In this document: piece by piece, positions 667 to 51,920 of the stretch
Layout: each line of letters begins with the position of its first letter
Position numbering within the stretch: position 1 is the first letter of the stretch
Assembly (NCBI GenBank): GCA_021904315.1
Contig: CM038917.1
Coordinates: 17,716,041-17,780,040, forward strand
Direction of reading: 5' to 3'
From: Sphagnum magellanicum
Taxonomy: Eukaryota > Streptophyta > Sphagnopsida > Sphagnales > Sphagnaceae
Length of the DNA stretch: 64,000 bases
Program-made: the position numbers and the translations under genes
The notes under the pieces: generated by a model
What the model was told of the DNA's origin: nothing
Databases searched by the model: none
What the model saw: only the letters and a program-made list of their open reading frames with translations

Positions 667-774
667 TTGTTGCTGCTTGGAAGAATTTTAATCAGTGGTG
701 GCTGCTGCATTGAATGTTTCATTTGTCGTTACTGTGCTTGTGTCATATACAGAGGTAAGGCAGTTGGAGGCAGC

Positions 775-2655
775 ATGGAATTGGGCATGACAAGAGGGGT
801 AGTAGTAACAATGGATCCACAGAACAACAATAAGAATAGTATCATGATCTCTAGATCACTGAGCCAAGAGGTGAAATTCAAGCCTCTTCGAAATGGACAA
901 ACTGCTAGATTTGTGCTGGCATTGGTGATGAGCGCACTTGTCACGATGGTGGCACTGTCACGGTTGACATTGTTGATGGTTCCATGGTCGTCATCATCAC
1001 CCACTGAGCAGCCATTGCACCATGTGTTGTCAAACCACCTGAATCCACCTGTTCTCAAACAAACTACTGTGGCATCAACTGGTAATGACACAGTGAAGAA
1101 CCACTTATCATCGTCAACTGAGCTCAAGCTGATTCCTAAATTGCCTGTCTCAAGTGAGCCGGCACAACTTAAGCTCAAGCTGATTCCTAAATTGCCAGTC
1201 ACAACCGGGCCTGCACAACTTGCTGAATCTTCTTCATCAGTTGACAAGGCATGTATGAGTAGAAGCCAGCAGCAGATGTACAGAGATTCTGCCCATCAGT
1301 TTCCAAGGTCGGTGCTGTTAGATCATGCACTGGAGAAGTACACCAAGATGCATTCTCAATGTGCATTATTATTAGATGATGGCAATGACACTTCTGTTCA
1401 AGTGAAAAAGGGATGTCAGTATGTGGTGTACCTAGAAGGCTATGAAGGACTTGGCAACCGACTGTTGTCACTAGTTTCAGCATTTGCCTATGCAATGGTA
1501 ACACATCGGGCTTTAGTGATAGATGCAAGAAGAGGTCATCTAGCCCAACTCTTATGTGAACCTTTTCACAATTCCTCCTGGTTGCTTCCACCCCAATTTG
1601 CAGATGCAGTTTGGGGGGCATCAACCCTTGAGGATGCAATGCGCTGGAACTTCCAAAATGTGACTTCTGTGCGGATCAACCTCAGGCACAAGCAAACTGA
1701 GGCAGATCAGACATTCTTTTGCCCTGCAACTCAGAAAGGTGTGCGGAACATGACCTGGATTTGGTGGGAGAGTAATCAGTACTATGTGCCTCGCCTCTTT
1801 ATGATACCAGATTTTTGGTCCCTGCTCTCTTCATGGTTCCCAGATCCCTCTCGAGTTTTCACCCAACTCACCCGATTCTTGTTTCTACCTCAAAATCACA
1901 TCTGGGCACAGATCAAAAGGATCCGGGCAGCATATCTTGCATCCTCAATGACTCAAGTTGGGTTGCAGGTGCGGCGACATGCGAATGCTGATAATGCCAC
2001 ATTGGTTCTATTAGTTCATGAGCTGATTATGAATTGCTCACTGAAGTATCATGTCCTTCCTAAGCCGGTGCTGCCAGTGATGCAGCAGCTGAAAGAGCAA
2101 CAATTAGCATTGAGAAACCAACCTGTGGCTGAGGTGAGTGTAGGCAACAGCAGCAGCAGCAGCTGGACGACAACTCAAAGTGTAGCAGTGCTGGTAACAT
2201 CACTGCACATTCAGTACTACGAGAAATTGCGAAACCTGTATGTGGAGCATGGCACTGAAGATGGCACGGTTGTGAGTGTTCACATGATGAGCCATGAAGG
2301 TGTGGAAAATGAGTCTTATGAGCAAGCTGTGAAAGCACTGACCGAGATTTGGCTTCTCAGTTTCAGCAACAAGCTGGCAACCACGAGCTGGTCCACATTT
2401 GGCTATGTTGCACAAGGTCTGGGAGGCTTACAACCCATCATTCTCAATTTTTTCACCATCGATTCACAGCATGAGACAAGGCCGGCGTGTTCTTTGGGTC
2501 AATCTAGTGAACCATGTCTGCATTACCCATTTGTCAAGCCTTCCAAGTGTGCAAAAGTGAAGATGAGCCGAAAACATTCCAAGTGGATCAAAATGCACAT
2601 CAGACCATGTCAGGATGAAGTAAATGGACTTCAACTCTGTTCAGGAGGAAATTAA
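775..2655 (+). CDS. FUT: Xyloglucan-type fucosyltransferase (GT37 family), Golgi type II membrane protein
   Basis: Predicted GDP-fucose-dependent fucosyltransferase of plant family GT37, which adds fucose to cell-wall polysaccharides or arabinogalactan proteins in the Golgi lumen. The protein has 626 residues from ATG 775 and no intron is evident. Layout: cytosolic tail 1-43, one membrane anchor about 44-69, a stem rich in Ser/Thr/Pro (70-155), then the catalytic domain. Seen motifs are the LGNR element (226-229) in EGYEGLGNRLLSLVSAFAYA, the VGLQVR motif (395-400), and WSTFGYVAQGLGG (539-551), all hallmarks of the family. Many N-x-S/T sites lie in the lumenal part. The frame stays open upstream to 667, but that stretch has no ATG and is Cys-rich, so 775 is preferred; ATG 787 is an alternative. 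The protein is longer than the usual 500-560 residues because of the long stem, which holds a 17-residue duplication, and a low-complexity Ser insert near 459-463. The acceptor polymer (xyloglucan, arabinogalactan or other) cannot be told from sequence. Confidence 0.93.
   Translation: MELGMTRGVVVTMDPQNNNKNSIMISRSLSQEVKFKPLRNGQTARFVLALVMSALVTMVALSRLTLLMVPWSSSSPTEQPLHHVLSNHLNPPVLKQTTVASTGNDTVKNHLSSSTELKLIPKLPVSSEPAQLKLKLIPKLPVTTGPAQLAESSSSVDKACMSRSQQQMYRDSAHQFPRSVLLDHALEKYTKMHSQCALLLDDGNDTSVQVKKGCQYVVYLEGYEGLGNRLLSLVSAFAYAMVTHRALVIDARRGHLAQLLCEPFHNSSWLLPPQFADAVWGASTLEDAMRWNFQNVTSVRINLRHKQTEADQTFFCPATQKGVRNMTWIWWESNQYYVPRLFMIPDFWSLLSSWFPDPSRVFTQLTRFLFLPQNHIWAQIKRIRAAYLASSMTQVGLQVRRHANADNATLVLLVHELIMNCSLKYHVLPKPVLPVMQQLKEQQLALRNQPVAEVSVGNSSSSSWTTTQSVAVLVTSLHIQYYEKLRNLYVEHGTEDGTVVSVHMMSHEGVENESYEQAVKALTEIWLLSFSNKLATTSWSTFGYVAQGLGGLQPIILNFFTIDSQHETRPACSLGQSSEPCLHYPFVKPSKCAKVKMSRKHSKWIKMHIRPCQDEVNGLQLCSGGN
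1120..1221 (+). repeat. 51-bp tandem duplication inside the fucosyltransferase stem
   Basis: Two nearly identical 51-bp units follow each other in frame. Each encodes a 17-residue unit with the core LKLIPKLPV, starting at residues 117 and 134. The high identity suggests a recent duplication. It lengthens the stem, not the catalytic domain. Confidence 0.9.
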
Positions 2656-12201: not shown

Positions 12202-15200
12202 TCATTTCTCAAGATTGCCGGTCAGAATGTCACATGCTTTTTTGTGTGTCTTCCATACAGAGACTTGACAGTCTCGTCCACAGTACCTGTAAAGATAAGA
12301 AAAGCTCTCTATATGAATGGAGCAGTTTGACAACAATGTGGCGACTAACTGTGCACAGATACAATTTCAGGAAGAAGATCCTATGCATCTGATTCCTAGG
12401 CGATCTTTGATACTGTTGCATATATTGCCAATCTGACTGTTTGGGTCTTGTTGTAACATTGAATGATGAAGTTACACCTTGTTACTGTCTTTTGCAGGAT
12501 TATGTGGGAAGAGGAGAAGTGGTGCATTTAGACCACAGTTCAAGGGTGCAAAGGCGGGGGGGGTGGAACAGGGAAATGGAAGATGGAACTGACTGGCCTG
12601 AGAAGTCTGAGCCAAGGTGAATAATCTATTGCAACAAATTGGCCAGGCAGGGAGGGGGATTCCAAACCATTCAGTCTTGCAGCGTGAGCATCGTTGCATT
12701 GCCACTTTCCCACAAACGGCACAAGTAGGTTGCTCCATCATTTCCTGCCACCATGCACCATTCTAAGCTGCATTTAAATCAAATGGAAGAAACAGTCCCC
12801 ACATTAACTCTTTCTGTTCATGTACCTACCTTTGGATCTTTGGTGCCTAGATGCCAAACAAACTTTGTTGCTGCTTCTTTGTGTACGAATGCTGTTTTCA
12901 TGGATAGCTGTGAAACCAGAATTGTGGTCAAGTTGGCTATGTAATAGAAAAATAATTTTGTCTTCCTCATAATTTTTTATCTCTAATGTTGTTGTATGAA
13001 GTGGGAACACAGATCTGATGCTGAAGACTAACCCCAAATTGGAACATCTGCAGCAACTCTTGAGCTTGCTGTTGTTGTGCTGTTGGATCCATTTCTCTTG
13101 AAAAGACTGTCTCCAGCTGCATATGCGCAATGTTTTCTGCATGCAATAAATGGGTTTTTGCAATCACAAAATACTAAACACTCCCACACTTTGGAAAATT
13201 GTCACTACTACTAGTGTACCATTGAACTCACAGAAATTCCTTACTCTGTACATGCCTTTCACAGTTTGTGCATGAATCTACCATGTGTTCTGATGAAAAG
13301 CAAATTGAGGTGAAGAGTTTAGCTGTTCCTACTCCAATTCCTGTGACTTGCAAGCTTCTCCCTTAACTCAGGAACCTGCCAAAACCATATTTTGTGCTTC
13401 TTTAACCAGAGAAACACAGCACACAGCAGTGGAAAATCGAAGTTGATAAGCTCTGAATCTGCAATGGAATAGAGAGTGGAAAGCTGTGTGCCCAAAAAGA
13501 GGGAGGGATTGAGGGAGCCTAAACCCTAGGCTGACCTGCTCAATAATGAGACGACCTGCTTTTGTTTCTGCATTTGAAGGTGCAACCTGTAGAACAAGTT
13601 CCTCCACTGCCTGCCAGGTGCATCAATCAACTTCTGTGCTAAAAGTTTAACTTGCTGCTTCTGAACCTACAGTCTCGTCTTGTCTCCCCCCTCCCTCCCC
13701 AAAATGGATGAATTCCTTCATGACTTGAAACTGGCACCAATAAAGATAGGTGCAGGGAGTTTTATGGGACCCAATTGGAGAAGGATGGTGGCCAGGAGGA
13801 AGCCTGATGAAAGCCTTACCCACTTCAGATCTTTGAGAATGTGCAGCTGATCAAGAAGGACGTCATTCAAGTGCCTTCTCAGCTGCACTTGGTACCATGG
13901 AGCCGAGGTATTCAGCAAAGAGTTCACCACTCAAAAAAATATTGCAGTAAGTTCAGAAAAGCAGATGCAGCTAAAAGGGAACTAGAATGTTGAGACCCAA
14001 AATTGGAATCAACTGTCATGCTCAATGACCCTTACACCAACAATTTGAAGAAGGGGAAGAAGAGACAGAGTTCAGGACCTTAAGAACTTGGTCCCGTCGG
14101 AAGCTATCATACGTGTATTTGGTACGGCATCGTGTGTCCACAATGAGGTTATAAAGAGCCAACCAGAGCTGCATGACAAAAATGTGCAGTGCCACATTAT
14201 GTAAGAAAGAGCAATGTTAGTATCTCCCTCCATGCTAGTGTATGACTATGTCCTTTCAGTTGCTTTGTCAAGAGCATTAAAAAATTGCAATTGTATATAC
14301 CACTATGGTTTGAAAGAACAGTCTGAGAGTGAAGCTGGGGGTGAAGTACCTGAGCATCAGGCTTGTTCAATTTGAAGCGATCTTGTGGTTGCACTTGTGT
14401 CCACTTACCTTCCACATACGTCTCCATCTACATCAAGAAGATTGTAAAACAGTTACATACTGTGGGGTTTTTTTTTCATAAAAACAGTTTGGAATTTTTT
14501 TGCAGGTCCAGGAGTAGTCTAGAGCTTGCTTGTTACCACAATCTTGTTGGAGCGCATACATTTCCTCTGCCAAGGAGGATCCTCCACAAGAGGAACCAGT
14601 GCCATGATGACATCATGACTGTCCAACATTCTGGCCTGCACCACCCATGGTCATAACCCATAACCCAGCCCATACCAAGTTTTCATATGCTGTACTTCTT
14701 TGTCTGGAGAAACGGTTTCAGAATACACAACTGTGACTCAGAAACTGCCGCATAACTTGCATGTCATGTTTATCAATTTTGTGAGCAAAACAGCAGCTGG
14801 ACGTAGTGAGACAGGTGAGGAACATGAAGGAATTAGAGTAGAGTTCGATGTGGACATACCATGACTGAGAGAGGCAGGTCACTCATGTAGTCTGTAAGGT
14901 ATCTGCAGCATCATCATGTACTTAGGCAAAGTATACCAAACTTTCAAAAGACAGGCAGTGAGAGAGTGGCAAAGAGCAAAGTAGATGGTGTACTGTGCAG
15001 TAGTGAAGTAGTACCTGAGAATTGTGAGAGAGCAAATTGCAATAGCAAACTGCATGTTGGCTGCCTGCATTTATATATTTAAATACAAAGAGAAACTGAA
15101 TTGGAAATAGAAAACTGTTGAACCACATCTTGTGACATGCACATGTAAAGCACACAAGCAGTCTATTTTATGTTGAGTCAAATAGATTCAGCTGTGCACA

Positions 15201-17655
15201 CATCATCACAACCACCTGTGTTATCCCTAGATCACATTCTTCTTTGGAGCTTCATGAGAACTGTACCACCTTTTCATGGAGATCCTCTTCAGGCTTCATG
15301 TCTAGGAGCTCAGCTGCCGTTCTTTCTGTTCCATGCATTTTACAGTCAATTGCAAAAAAATTAAGAAACTACTAGTCCCTGCCTCTAGCTGCTCTTACAA
15401 CTCAGAGCTGGGCTTTTCTGTTGTCTGGTGAGTTATCTAGCACTGGCTCAATAGCACTCACCTATAATTTGCTCATGTGATGATCCTATTTCAATACCCA
15501 ATCTTTCCTTTTCTTGCTATCACTATCTCAATCTTACTCAGGGATACCCATTCCTTTGAAACTTGTGATTCTCAACTGCCAAAACAATTTTGTGTTCAAA
15601 GTTCAAACCTGATTTTATTTTGTTGCTACAATCAACAATTACACCCACCTTTGTAAGCTGCATCCTCAGAGGCTTGTGTGTTGAGGTACACCAGTTTTCG
15701 ATAGCAGTAATCTGTAAGCTGAAAACAATTTGCCCCCCCGCAAAAAACCAACAACAATTTCACTGCTTGCGGGATTAGGACTTGCCACAATATTATAGTG
15801 GGCTGACAAAGATTATAGTCTACCTGAGTGTGTTGCCCACAATCATAAATATCATTACCTCAAGAAGACAATCTGAACCAATAGCCTCACACGCTTCACG
15901 GTGAAACAGGATGACCTGCAAAAAATATTTTTGCCACACCAACCAGAATCTCTTTGAGAAGGAGAGTTCCCTGAACTGGCTAAGAACAAAAGAATTTTTT
16001 TAACAGGTTTTTTATGGGATTATTATTGTCTGAGAATTAACAAACTTGTTTCCCCCCCTCTCACAGCCCATTGCCATGCATAAGGAGAATAACTACATTG
16101 AAAGAGAATCTGATTTGAGGAGCTTTCCACAACCAGGACAGAACCTCAAGCAAGTTGACAATGGTTGTTTCCTGATAGAGTATAAGCTGAAGAGTAATTG
16201 TGGAGGCCTCAGCTGCAAGTTGCTTTATTATATGTGGAAACACTTTCTCCTTCCACAACTGCAGAGGCAAAACAGATTATCTTCATGAGTTTGTACTGAC
16301 AACTTCTCCACACTCAGGATATTTATTACTTAGTCAGCCTGAATAGAAACTATGAGAGATGACCCATTAAGAAGGTCATAGAGATTTCAGATCTGACATC
16401 ATAACAGCAACATATCAGTGATCATGAAAAGAGTGAAACCCAACCAGAACAAAGAGAGAAAAATGAAAGCAAAAATTGATGGTCATACACATACAGTGTG
16501 CTACATGAGGCAATTTGGAGCAGATGAGTTCAGTGCAAATGGTGGTTCAGATTGCTTTTCCACTCATGAGCAGAAAATGGGTAGGCAGGCAGTTGGGTGT
16601 ACCACACATGATTGATGTCTTGCTACAGCCATCAATGGGAGAAGTTCAAAAAGAATTGCTTTGCTTTTGCAAAACTAACCTCCACTACAAGGAGTTCATG
16701 CATGAGAACCTCCATCTTGCCATGTGAGATGAGAGCCTGCAGTGAGAGCCATACTATCTATCAGATAACCTAAAGTTTTCATGTCATCGTAACATGTGAA
16801 AAATGGTCAGACAATCCATTCTTATGCTCATGATATGGGCAAAGTTCTTCAGAAGCTGTTTGTCAAGGAAGAAGAAGCGACAATCACAACATTCAGCACA
16901 GTTCACTAGCTACCCATAATATAAAAGGTCAAGGAAGCACTTACAGACATCACAAACTCATCACAGTGAGCCATTGTGTTGTAATGTGCCTGGCCACCCA
17001 ACACAGCAGGCTTACTTAAGTAGCACTTAGGTAGTCAAATTGCACTTGGACGTATGCAAATGATGATGTTGCAGCTACTATGATTGGGTAGGCAGGTTGC
17101 CACCAGCAAGGACACAAGTGATCGCTGAGGACAAGAAATCGCTGTTGTGCTCTTTGAAGTGATTGCATTCAATGGTCCCACGGGAGAGACACACAGACCT
17201 GCAAGTTGAGCTTCTCCAGATTCCCATGTTGTGTCAACCATTTCTGACTTCCCACCTGGAGGAGCCATGTCATTTTTTTCCCCCCCTTCAGACCACCATA
17301 TTCAGAGCCCTGACAAAACCTAAAAACTGCAAAATAAGCAAGATTTTACAATTTTACATGATTTGTGCCACATTGAATGAGTTCATTGAGCTAATGGAAC
17401 ACTTCCACTGGTGGCAGTCAAACCTGCTCAACTGGGAATGACATGATTCGTTCAACCATGAAATCAGCCTCTTGGGATGTAAGCAATACCTGCTTCCATA
17501 CAACACAAAATTCCATAATGAAGGTCCCAGTTTTAAATCCAGCAAAAATCAGAAAATGGGGTGTTACAGGAAATAGAGAAAAGATCCAAGACATATACCC
17601 CATCTTCATATTTCAAGAATGCAGGTCGTGTAGGAGCTATTGCTGGAATTTCCAT
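12202..17655 (-). CDS. ZMYND10: ZMYND10, ciliary dynein-arm assembly factor with MYND finger
   Basis: Orthologue of animal and algal ZMYND10, a cytoplasmic co-chaperone factor needed to assemble axonemal dynein arms. In a plant it implies motile sperm. Twenty exons, all with GT-AG borders and continuous frame, give 467 residues: 17655-17599, 17489-17424, 17255-17199, 16989-16945, 16736-16680, 16258-16145, 15915-15859, 15718-15649, 15060-15015, 14902-14860, 14635-14537, 14427-14350, 14168-14079, 13882-13820, 13610-13536, 13375-13333, 13136-13033, 12907-12830, 12744-12668, 12286-12202. Family features, in order: LTQHGNLEKLNLQ, ISHGKMEVLMHELLVVE, LWKEKVFP, ILRYLTDYMSDLPLSVMARML, LWLALYNLIVD, LNDVLLDQLHILKDL, and a C-terminal MYND finger with every ligand: C422, C425, C433, C436, C442, C446, H454, C458. 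Human ZMYND10 has 440 residues. The first exon (MEIPAIAPTRPAFLKYEDG) and the exon at 12907-12830 rest on frame and splice sites only, so they are the weakest parts. Confidence 0.94.
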
Positions 17656-29590: not shown

Positions 29591-32265
<2,675 letters not shown>

Positions 32266-48965: not shown

Positions 48966-51267
48966 AAACAACCCTAGCCATGTTATTAAATTGAACATTT
49001 AATCATAAAGAAGATTCTTTGCATCTCCTTTTTCTTGTGAGGAAAAAAGTAACATGGTGTGTGTAGACAAACCATCACAAGATGCTTTTTGATTCATGTG
49101 GAGCTTTGTTTATAATTCAATACCTTCATTTTTGGATTCAGAGCTTGCATGCAAAGATAGACAAACAAGTTCAAAATTGAAGCTAATGGTGGAATTTCTT
49201 TTTGAAACTCATGGGCAAGCAAATAGTCTATTGTGGCTATACACTCATGTATGGTAATTTCATAATGAATTTTAACTTTCAATGACCTCTCTTTCTTTTT
49301 CAAATTTTGTTCATGTAATGCTAATGTTCACTTGGAACATCATATTCACAAGGAAATGACTTGTGAGAACATTTATGAGTGGAAATTCATCCCTATTCTT
49401 GGTTTGAATTATGAAGCATGTGCAATCCACCAAACTTGGAACAAGAGTGTACCAAGATCATGGTGTTAGATCTTGCTACATGAAAGGTTGCAAATGAAAA
49501 TCTCAATAAGGATTACAAAATCTCCCCCTTTGCAACAAAAGGACAAAAGAAGAGACAAATCCCCACCCATCTACTTTAGATTTATAGATTTTTGGAGGAT
49601 CCGAAAGTTATTCCACCTACATGATCCATGGAAAATTGAAATGGTCAAGTATATCTTTCAAAATCCAATAACAAATGGCAAACAAGTCAAAGACTTTGAT
49701 TTGTCTAAAATATTCAACCAAAAAGTAGTACATTATATGTTGCAATTTGTATGAAAGTTAGAATCTTACATTGGCATCGTTTGATCAATCACCAATTGAT
49801 CCTTGTGATGCAGAACGACAAATAATAGCATGCTTTTGAAGTAGTTGGCTACATTTTCTTTGAAATTCATTGATTAGTGCAATTGCATCAACCAAATAGT
49901 TGTCAAATTCCAAGACTTCTGTGATCACTACTAACCTTGGCAATGACAAACCAAGTGCTTTCGAAACCCCTAAAGTGAACAAGCCTACAACAAAAGACTT
50001 GCCACTATCTGAGAGAATCACATTGGCAACTCATGTGAACAAGAGATTATTGCAATGTTATGGGATCAGCAAGACAATATCCATTAACTTAGAGTAACGA
50101 GCTTCAATAAAGCATATTCAAATGGATTTGAATGTTGAGTACTACAATATAACAAGTTAGGGTACTACAAGCATCAAGAAAAGATGGTACCTATTTAAAA
50201 GCCTTGACACATGATGTCTATTGACATTGTGAATTCAAGCTGGAATAGAATAGCCAACACTACAACTTACCATTGCAAGGGCGTTTAAAGCCAACAATGG
50301 AGATGCTCTAAAGGCATGGCATGGCCCAATTCTACCATGTTTGATGTAGGTACTCGTTTGTGTGTCTTTTACTAATACCAATAGAGAAAGAAGAGGGCAA
50401 CCACACAACAACAAAACAAAAACAACAACAACATGCTTCTTGAACAATAGCTACAATCATCAAAGTCATCCAAATGGCATGGTTTTGATGATTTACATCA
50501 ATGGGATGGATAAGCAAACAATGGGTGTCCATACCTAAAAAACCCTAAGCAAGCCTACCCATTCCTCCTACAAGACCAATAAGATGGATGAAACCCTAGC
50601 CATTGCAACTTTCTAGATTTCCCTATCATCCATAAATGAAATCTACACATTTGTAATGTTTTCACAAATTGTAAATTTAAGGCATAAATTTTCCAAGATC
50701 CTTAAAAGCATTATTTCAAGGTTATTTTCTTTGACATTCAGCTACTTTTTTTAGGGTTTTCCCTAAGTGAGAGAGGTGGGTTGTCTGCTAATTCCACTTT
50801 TGGTTATGCCAATTCCCATTTGCCAAGTGAACCAACCATGGGAACGCAATAGTGATGTGAATCAATGGTGGGGAACGTTGCGTATGCTGGGAACAGGCCC
50901 CAGTAGAATAATTGGTGCATTTTTATTTCTTTTTAATTATTTTTCTATGATACCCAACAGATAGAAAGGGGAGCTCACCCAGTTTTTCATCCTCCATTTT
51001 GTTGAATAAAAACTCTAGCGAATTTTCCTCCCAAAAAATTAGCAAAAGTAGTCTAATAATTTAATTTACAGTAGAAAAAACACATTAGTTTCTCCCCAAA
51101 AAAACTCCCAATTTTTTTTTTGTCCCCAAAAAATCACTTGAGCTCACTAATGAGTTTAAGAATAGAAGCCAAGCCATATGAAATTCCTGCACATTCATTA
51201 GGTTGATTTTGCTTGCAAAATTTGGTTAATTGTTGGTTTTGGGGGGCCAATTTTTTATAAAAAAATC
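48966..51267. other. Intergenic region, no recognisable gene
   Basis: Moderately AT-rich DNA. Open frames up to 93 codons occur on both strands and overlap, for example 49473-49754 (+) and 49785-50021 (-). None shows a domain I know, and they may be transposon remnants. Confidence 0.45.
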
Positions 51268-51715
51268 ATCCAAATGGTAATTAAATTACCTACCTATTTA
51301 AAATTAAATAATTCATTTAATTAATGCTAATTGCATCCAAATGGTAATTAAATTACCTACCTATTTAAAATTAAATAATTCATTTGATTAATGTTAATTG
51401 CTTCCAAATGATAAATAAATTACCTACCTATAAATAATTCACTTAATTAAATGTTAATTGCATCCAAATGATAATTAAATTACCTACCTATTTAAAATTA
51501 AATAATTCATTTAGTTAATGTTAATTACATCCAAATGATAATGGTATTACCTACCTAATTTAAAATTAAATAATTCATTTAATTAATGCTAATTGCATCC
51601 AAATGATAATTAAATTAACTACCTATTTAAAATTAAATAATTCATTTAATTAATGCTAATTACATCCAAATAATAATTATATTACCCACCTATTTAATTT
51701 GGTAATTAATTCATG
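51268..51715. repeat. AT-rich tandem repeat of about 66 bp, seven copies
   Basis: ATCCAAAT or a one-base variant recurs at about 51268, 51334, 51401, 51460, 51528, 51597 and 51663. Each is followed by a TAATTAAATTACCTACCTA-like stretch, TTTAAAATTAAATAATTCAT and TTAATGCTAATTGC. Copies are closely similar. Confidence 0.93.
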
Positions 51716-51749
51716 CAAAAGTTTGAAATTCAAAGTTGGGAAAACAGAC

Positions 51750-51920
51750 ACACACACACACACACACACAAACAGAAGTGGCGCTTTCCAACCGAGGCCA
51801 ACAAGTTTGACCGACCCAAGCAAGAAGAAGAAGAAGAAGAAGAAGTCTGGATTGCCCTGCCCTCTTCCCCTGGCAGAGTCCATGTGGTATTGGAGGATGA
51901 TGAGTTGCTTCAAGCAATGC

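What the first reader, a model, noticed from the sequence alone, without database searches (positions are those of the whole stretch)
12202..17655. Intact ZMYND10 dynein-arm assembly gene in a land plant
All 20 exons join in frame. The eight MYND ligands (C422, C425, C433, C436, C442, C446, H454, C458) and the LALYNL, LLDQL and WKEKVFP regions are present. The gene is expected only where cilia with dynein arms are built, so it predicts flagellated sperm. It also narrows the organism to a bryophyte, lycophyte, fern, cycad or Ginkgo. The exon map with many 43-114-base exons can be used to correct automated models, which tend to miss such short exons.
Basis: partly seen in the sequence, partly recalled or inferred. 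Interest (0 to 1): 0.75.

Follow-up and report, generated by a model that had tools for sequence, protein, structure and literature searches.

The report
Moss gene for sperm motor assembly
This is an ordinary, intact moss copy of ZMYND10, a protein that helps build the motors of swimming sperm, in a genome where only the inner set of those motors was found.

Summary
The gene is real. On the minus strand, 17655 to 12202, 20 exons with GT-AG introns join into a 461-residue protein. A doubtful in-frame 78-base exon would make it 487 residues. The MYND finger matches human ZMYND10 best (E 1.2e-10; next family 2e-4), and residues 18-386 align at 37% identity to the human protein as I recall it. One locus was found in the genome. 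Assembly size and contig lengths fit the peat moss Sphagnum divinum. The genome also holds p28, RSP3, PIH1 and CFAP298 matches. Of 8 dynein heavy-chain genes found and classified, 8 match inner-arm types best. One relative of the outer-arm docking protein DC2 is present, against a clean loss. Moss ZMYND10 thus most likely serves inner-arm dyneins, which bears on which proposed client is universal. New member of a known family, modest extra value.

The parts
17599..17655 (-). exon 1, start codon at 17655
17424..17489 (-). exon 2
17199..17255 (-). exon 3
16945..16989 (-). exon 4
16680..16736 (-). exon 5
16145..16258 (-). exon 6 (WKEKVFP)
15859..15915 (-). exon 7
15649..15718 (-). exon 8
15270..15325 (-). 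exon 9
15015..15064 (-). exon 10
14860..14902 (-). exon 11
14537..14635 (-). exon 12
14350..14427 (-). exon 13
14079..14168 (-). exon 14 (LALYNL)
13820..13882 (-). exon 15 (LLDQL)
13536..13610 (-). exon 16
13333..13375 (-). exon 17
13033..13136 (-). exon 18
12830..12907 (-). doubtful optional exon, 26 residues in frame; more likely not used
   Evidence: against: weakest acceptor of 20 and lowest coding score of 21 exons, gap in the alignment to recalled human ZMYND10; for: with a longer form it ranks top of 22 candidate exons inside the introns
12668..12744 (-). exon 19 of the 20-exon model (first MYND ligands)
12202..12286 (-). last exon (remaining MYND ligands and stop codon)

Best explanation
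This is the moss orthologue of ZMYND10/DNAAF7, a cytoplasmic co-chaperone of axonemal dynein assembly, at one locus. In developing sperm cells it most likely uses its C-terminal MYND zinc finger and its N-terminal part to bring dynein heavy chains to the HSP90 machinery, as proposed in mouse. Its clients here would be the inner-arm dyneins (I1 and the single-headed types), because no outer-arm heavy chain was found in the genome. Shown here: the intact frame, the family match, the single locus, and the inner-arm heavy-chain set with p28, PIH1, CFAP298 and RSP3 matches. Inferred: expression in sperm cells, the HSP90 step, and the client restriction.
For: Intact 20-exon frame with GT-AG introns. 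Best PDB match is the human ZMYND10 MYND domain, 2d8q, E 1.2e-10; the next family is CBFA2T1, E 2e-4. Pfam zf-MYND at 41.6 bits. Residues 18-386 of the 487-residue model align to recalled human ZMYND10 at 36.8% identity, 241 bits, against at most 24.6 bits in 200 shuffles. Of 20 genome matches to the protein, 19 lie at this locus and one is a weak MYND match elsewhere. Eight of 8 classified heavy-chain genes are best matched by inner-arm chains; a second census with AAA_9 (39 of 39 candidates scored) falls at the same 8 places, plus near-identical partial copies of one of them. p28, PIH1 (two places), CFAP298 (one exon, 28 of 97 positions) and RSP3 (two places) match over their cut-offs. ZMYND10-FKBP8-HSP90 and the loss of heavy chains in the mouse mutant: PMC6044906, passages seen.
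Against: No RNA, no expression data and no plant or algal ZMYND10 was available for comparison. A DC2-like docking-complex relative is present, so some outer-arm-related part survives. Outer-arm intermediate chains (DNAI1, DNAI2), LRRC6/DNAAF11 and FKBP8 were not searched. The DNAAF3 search did not complete. PIH1 and MYND domains also occur in proteins unrelated to cilia (recalled). Genome searches score only the best candidates, so a very diverged chain could be missed.
Confidence: 0.9

Rival explanations
1. The gene is a different MYND protein, such as a SMYD methyltransferase or a transcription co-regulator, and only the zinc finger resembles ZMYND10.
For: MYND fingers occur in many proteins; five other places in this genome pass the Pfam MYND cut-off (the window gene is not among them, its finger being split by an intron).
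Against: The finger fits ZMYND10 (E 1.2e-10) far better than the next family (2e-4); the N-terminal part aligns to recalled human ZMYND10, and Pfam shows no further domain over its cut-off.
Confidence: 0.02
2. The locus is a decaying relic in a moss and is not used.
For: One locus left although two whole-genome duplications are reported for Sphagnum; no RNA seen.
Against: All 20 exons are open with GT-AG sites and all eight zinc ligands are kept; dynein and assembly-factor genes are present.
Confidence: 0.03
3. ZMYND10 still serves outer-arm dyneins here, because the moss keeps an outer arm that the searches missed.
For: A DC2/ODAD1-family gene is present.
Against: Two heavy-chain censuses with different domains gave the same 8 places, and 8 of 8 classified genes are inner-arm types. 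Papers state that moss and fern sperm lack outer arms (passages).
Confidence: 0.05

Closest known systems
ZMYND10 / DNAAF7 (human, mouse, Drosophila CG11253)
   Same: C-terminal MYND finger that aligns without gaps to human ZMYND10; N-terminal part conserved over about 370 residues (recalled sequence); similar length (440 in human; 461 here)
   Different: Found in a moss with no outer-arm heavy chain detected; a possible 26-residue insertion before the MYND finger
HEATR2 / DNAAF5 in Physcomitrella (PMC4168999, passages)
   Same: A dynein assembly factor kept in a moss described as having inner arms only
   Different: A different protein (HEAT repeats)
ODA8/LRRC56 and ODA16 (PMC4361367, passages)
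   Same: Outer-arm assembly factors whose gain and loss were followed across eukaryotes
   Different: ODA8 is reported absent from Physcomitrella and Selaginella, with a similar pattern for ODA16 but not for DC2; ZMYND10 is kept in this moss

Membership tests
ZMYND10 / DNAAF7 | C-terminal MYND finger of the ZMYND10 type | tested here: met
   2d8q best PDB match, E 1.2e-10, next family 2e-4; Pfam zf-MYND
ZMYND10 / DNAAF7 | Conserved N-terminal part outside the finger | tested here: met
Its length equals the 440 given in PMC12633730 and its finger matches the 2d8q residues shown
ZMYND10 / DNAAF7 | Reciprocal best hit in a full protein set, and a tree with algal and animal orthologues | not testable with these tools
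   No eukaryotic protein collection is held apart from PDB chains
ZMYND10 / DNAAF7 | Occurs with axonemal dyneins and other assembly factors | tested here: met
   Heavy chains, p28, PIH1, CFAP298, RSP3; DNAAF3 search not answered (last try)
ZMYND10 / DNAAF7 | Binding to FKBP8, HSP90 and LRRC6 and need for dynein arms | not testable with these tools
   Needs experiments
Inner-arm-only axoneme (genome level) | No outer-arm heavy chain | tested here: met
   8 of 8 classified heavy chains are inner-arm types; same places with AAA_9; one degenerate fragment not classified against PDB
Inner-arm-only axoneme (genome level) | No outer-arm docking complex | tested here: not met
   One DC2/ODAD1-family gene: 35.6 bits in the genome search, 40.4 bits for two joined exons in Pfam, DC2 best PDB match E 1.3e-9
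Inner-arm-only axoneme (genome level) | No outer-arm intermediate chains (DNAI1, DNAI2) | not tested
   No query held that is specific to them

The most novel reading that the evidence does not exclude
Mosses are a natural experiment that separates the proposed clients of ZMYND10. If outer-arm heavy chains and DNAI1 are gone but ZMYND10 is kept, its universal job is inner-arm (heavy-chain) folding, and its stabilising of DNAI1 is a lineage extra. A DC2-like docking protein that outlived the arms would have a second role on the doublet.
Probability: 0.45. Interest if true: 0.5.

Novelty: new member of a known kind. Interest (0 to 1): 0.3.

Why it matters
The gene itself is expected in any plant with swimming sperm. 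Its value is comparative. Two published views make ZMYND10 a helper of heavy chains or a stabiliser of the outer-arm chain DNAI1. A moss with inner-arm heavy chains only, but an intact ZMYND10, speaks for the first as the general role and gives a simple knockout test.

Tried and rejected
The 21-exon, 487-residue model is kept only as an alternative. The first joining attempt broke the frame at exon 6 and was corrected. A degenerate heavy-chain fragment at C8:11.355M (two stops inside) was left out of the 8 classified genes and not searched against PDB; it resembles the pair on C6. Paper searches: ZMYND10 + bryophyte found none; ZMYND10 + Physcomitr found two papers, whose Physcomitrella passages concern HEATR2 and ODA8; axonemal dynein + Physcomitr + antheridia found none; one search was too broad (5,193 papers, none of the 20 listed holding ZMYND10); one search listed two papers on dynein heavy chain + V chromosome + moss, not opened. 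Passages of PMC5406480 and PMC3268115 gave nothing on plant dynein arms. The Hodges 2012 paper on land plant cilia is not held. The Rfam scan of the window found nothing.

Full report
The observation. Reading the minus strand of 18600-11800 in three frames and checking splice sites gave a chain of exons from an ATG at 17655 to a stop ending at 12202. A first join failed at exon 6; with the donor at 16145 the whole chain is open. The model with every candidate exon has 21 exons and 487 residues; without the 78-base candidate at 12907-12830 it has 20 exons and 461 residues. The introns are GT-AG. The eight zinc ligands are at 416, 419, 427, 430, 436, 440, 448 and 452 in the 461-residue model.

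The doubtful exon. Scored with splice-site tables from the other introns, its acceptor is the weakest of 20 (1.8 bits; others 4.9-13.4), its donor is good (8.8 bits), and its coding score is the lowest of 21 exons (-0.03; others 0.10 to 0.90). The other sites and exons were scored with tables that contain them, which favours them. The recalled human protein has a gap there. On the other side, among 22 in-frame candidate exons inside 4,068 intron bases it and a longer form with the same donor rank first (10.6 and 10.7 bits; next 8.6). I prefer the 20-exon model but an optional exon is not excluded.

What it is. In PDB sequences the best matches are the two human ZMYND10 MYND entries (E 1.2e-10 and 2.6e-10); the next family is CBFA2T1 at 2e-4. 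Pfam gives only zf-MYND over its cut-off. The recalled sequence agrees with 2d8q over the aligned finger and has the 440 residues listed for DNAAF7 in PMC12633730 (passages seen). A whole-genome protein search gave 20 matches: 19 at this locus and one weak MYND match on C18. Five other places in the genome pass the Pfam MYND cut-off.

Which organism. The genome has 438,994,042 bases in 31 contigs. The lengths I saw are 17.5-32.4 Mb for nine of C1-C19, 4.72 Mb for C20, and 0.23 and 0.04 Mb for C21 and C31. PMC9946827 (passages seen) describes a 439-Mb Sphagnum divinum assembly with 19 autosomes and a small chromosome 20, the male V chromosome, and two whole-genome duplications. The fit is good but not proof: that paper gives 4.7 Mb for chromosome 20 in one place and 5.4 Mb for S. 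divinum in another.

Its setting: heavy chains. With AAA_6 as a probe the genome has 8 dynein heavy-chain places and one degenerate fragment (35 matches from 36 candidates, all scored; 3 of 14 control genomes gave matches, 0 over the cut-off). I searched the 8, not the fragment, against PDB. Best matches: C12:13.6M to the I1 beta chain; C8:2.0M to 8glv_Cn, next DNAH10; C6:11.4M to 8glv_Fm, next DNAH6; C14:2.5M to DHC2, next DNAH12; C6:2.7M and C6:2.2M to 8glv_JG, nearest named DNAH7; C8:7.5M and C20:1.6M to 8glv_Mm, nearest named DNAH3 (one DNAH3 chain bears another label in the listing). That the 8glv chains without a descriptive name are inner-arm dyneins rests on these relatives; DNAH6 and DNAH7 are called inner-arm in PMC5895051, the others are recalled as such. 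DNAH9 and DNAH17, recalled as outer-arm, are the best outer-arm scores where listed: 321.4 against 506.7 bits, 368.9 against 567.4, 307.9 against 505.0, 362.5 against 521.1. In some searches no outer-arm chain lies within the E-value limit I set. A second census with AAA_9 (39 of 39 candidates scored) falls at the same 8 places, roughly 10-25 kb along the same strand, plus extra partial copies on C14.

Its setting: other parts. p28 matches at one gene (4 exons), PIH1 at two places, CFAP298 at one exon covering 28 of 97 positions and RSP3 at two places; the 14 control genomes gave 0 matches in each of these four. An ODAD1/DC2-family gene is present (one exon over the cut-off, two further weak matches below it; 6 of 14 controls gave matches, 0 over the cut-off). 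Two of its exons joined score 40.4 bits in Pfam and match DC2 best in PDB at E 1.3e-9. That counts against a clean absence of outer-arm parts. DNAAF3 could not be searched because the tool stayed busy; intermediate chains and LRRC6 were not searched.

How it most likely works. In mouse, ZMYND10 works with FKBP8 and HSP90 on heavy chains, and almost all outer and inner heavy chains detected fall in the mutant (PMC6044906, passages). Another study finds that both arm types are absent without it and that it stabilises the outer-arm chain DNAI1 (PMC5895051, passages). Moss and fern sperm are described as lacking outer arms (PMC4415241; Marsilea in PMC2239267; Physcomitrella in PMC4168999; Physcomitrella and Selaginella in PMC4361367; passages seen). 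An intact ZMYND10 beside inner-arm heavy chains only therefore points to heavy-chain or inner-arm work as its general role. HEATR2 shows the same pattern in Physcomitrella, whereas ODA8 is reported absent there. PMC4361367 adds that DC2 does not follow the ODA8 pattern, which may fit the DC2 relative seen here.

Verdict. It is an ordinary orthologue, with a modest comparative point about its clients.

Noticed in passing
G000:C20:1585648-1600171 (L014, L034, L039, L070, L071, L086): A single-headed-type inner-arm dynein heavy-chain gene lies on the 4.7-Mb contig that fits the male V sex chromosome of Sphagnum. The Sphagnum genome paper's main text has 0 occurrences of dynein, flagell- or sperm.
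   Followed up: partly
G000:C14:2510497-2696053 (L062-L065, L072-L075, L085): Three further partial copies (aligned DNA about 94-97% identical, apart from one short 98% piece) of the AAA_9 part of a DHC2-type dynein gene, plus one more diverged piece, lie within 190 kb; none of them gave an AAA_6 match in the first census.
   Followed up: partly
G000:C7:3161009-3161194 (L048, L051): A DC2/ODAD1-like docking-complex gene in a genome without detected outer-arm heavy chains.
   Followed up: partly
window 667-2655: Xyloglucan fucosyltransferase reading frame (Pfam XG_FTase).
   Followed up: no
window 29591-31795: Pieces of a cytokinin dehydrogenase gene on the minus strand (FAD_binding_4 and Cytokin-bind).
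   Followed up: no
window 51229-51760: Tandem array with units of about 67 bases.
   Followed up: no
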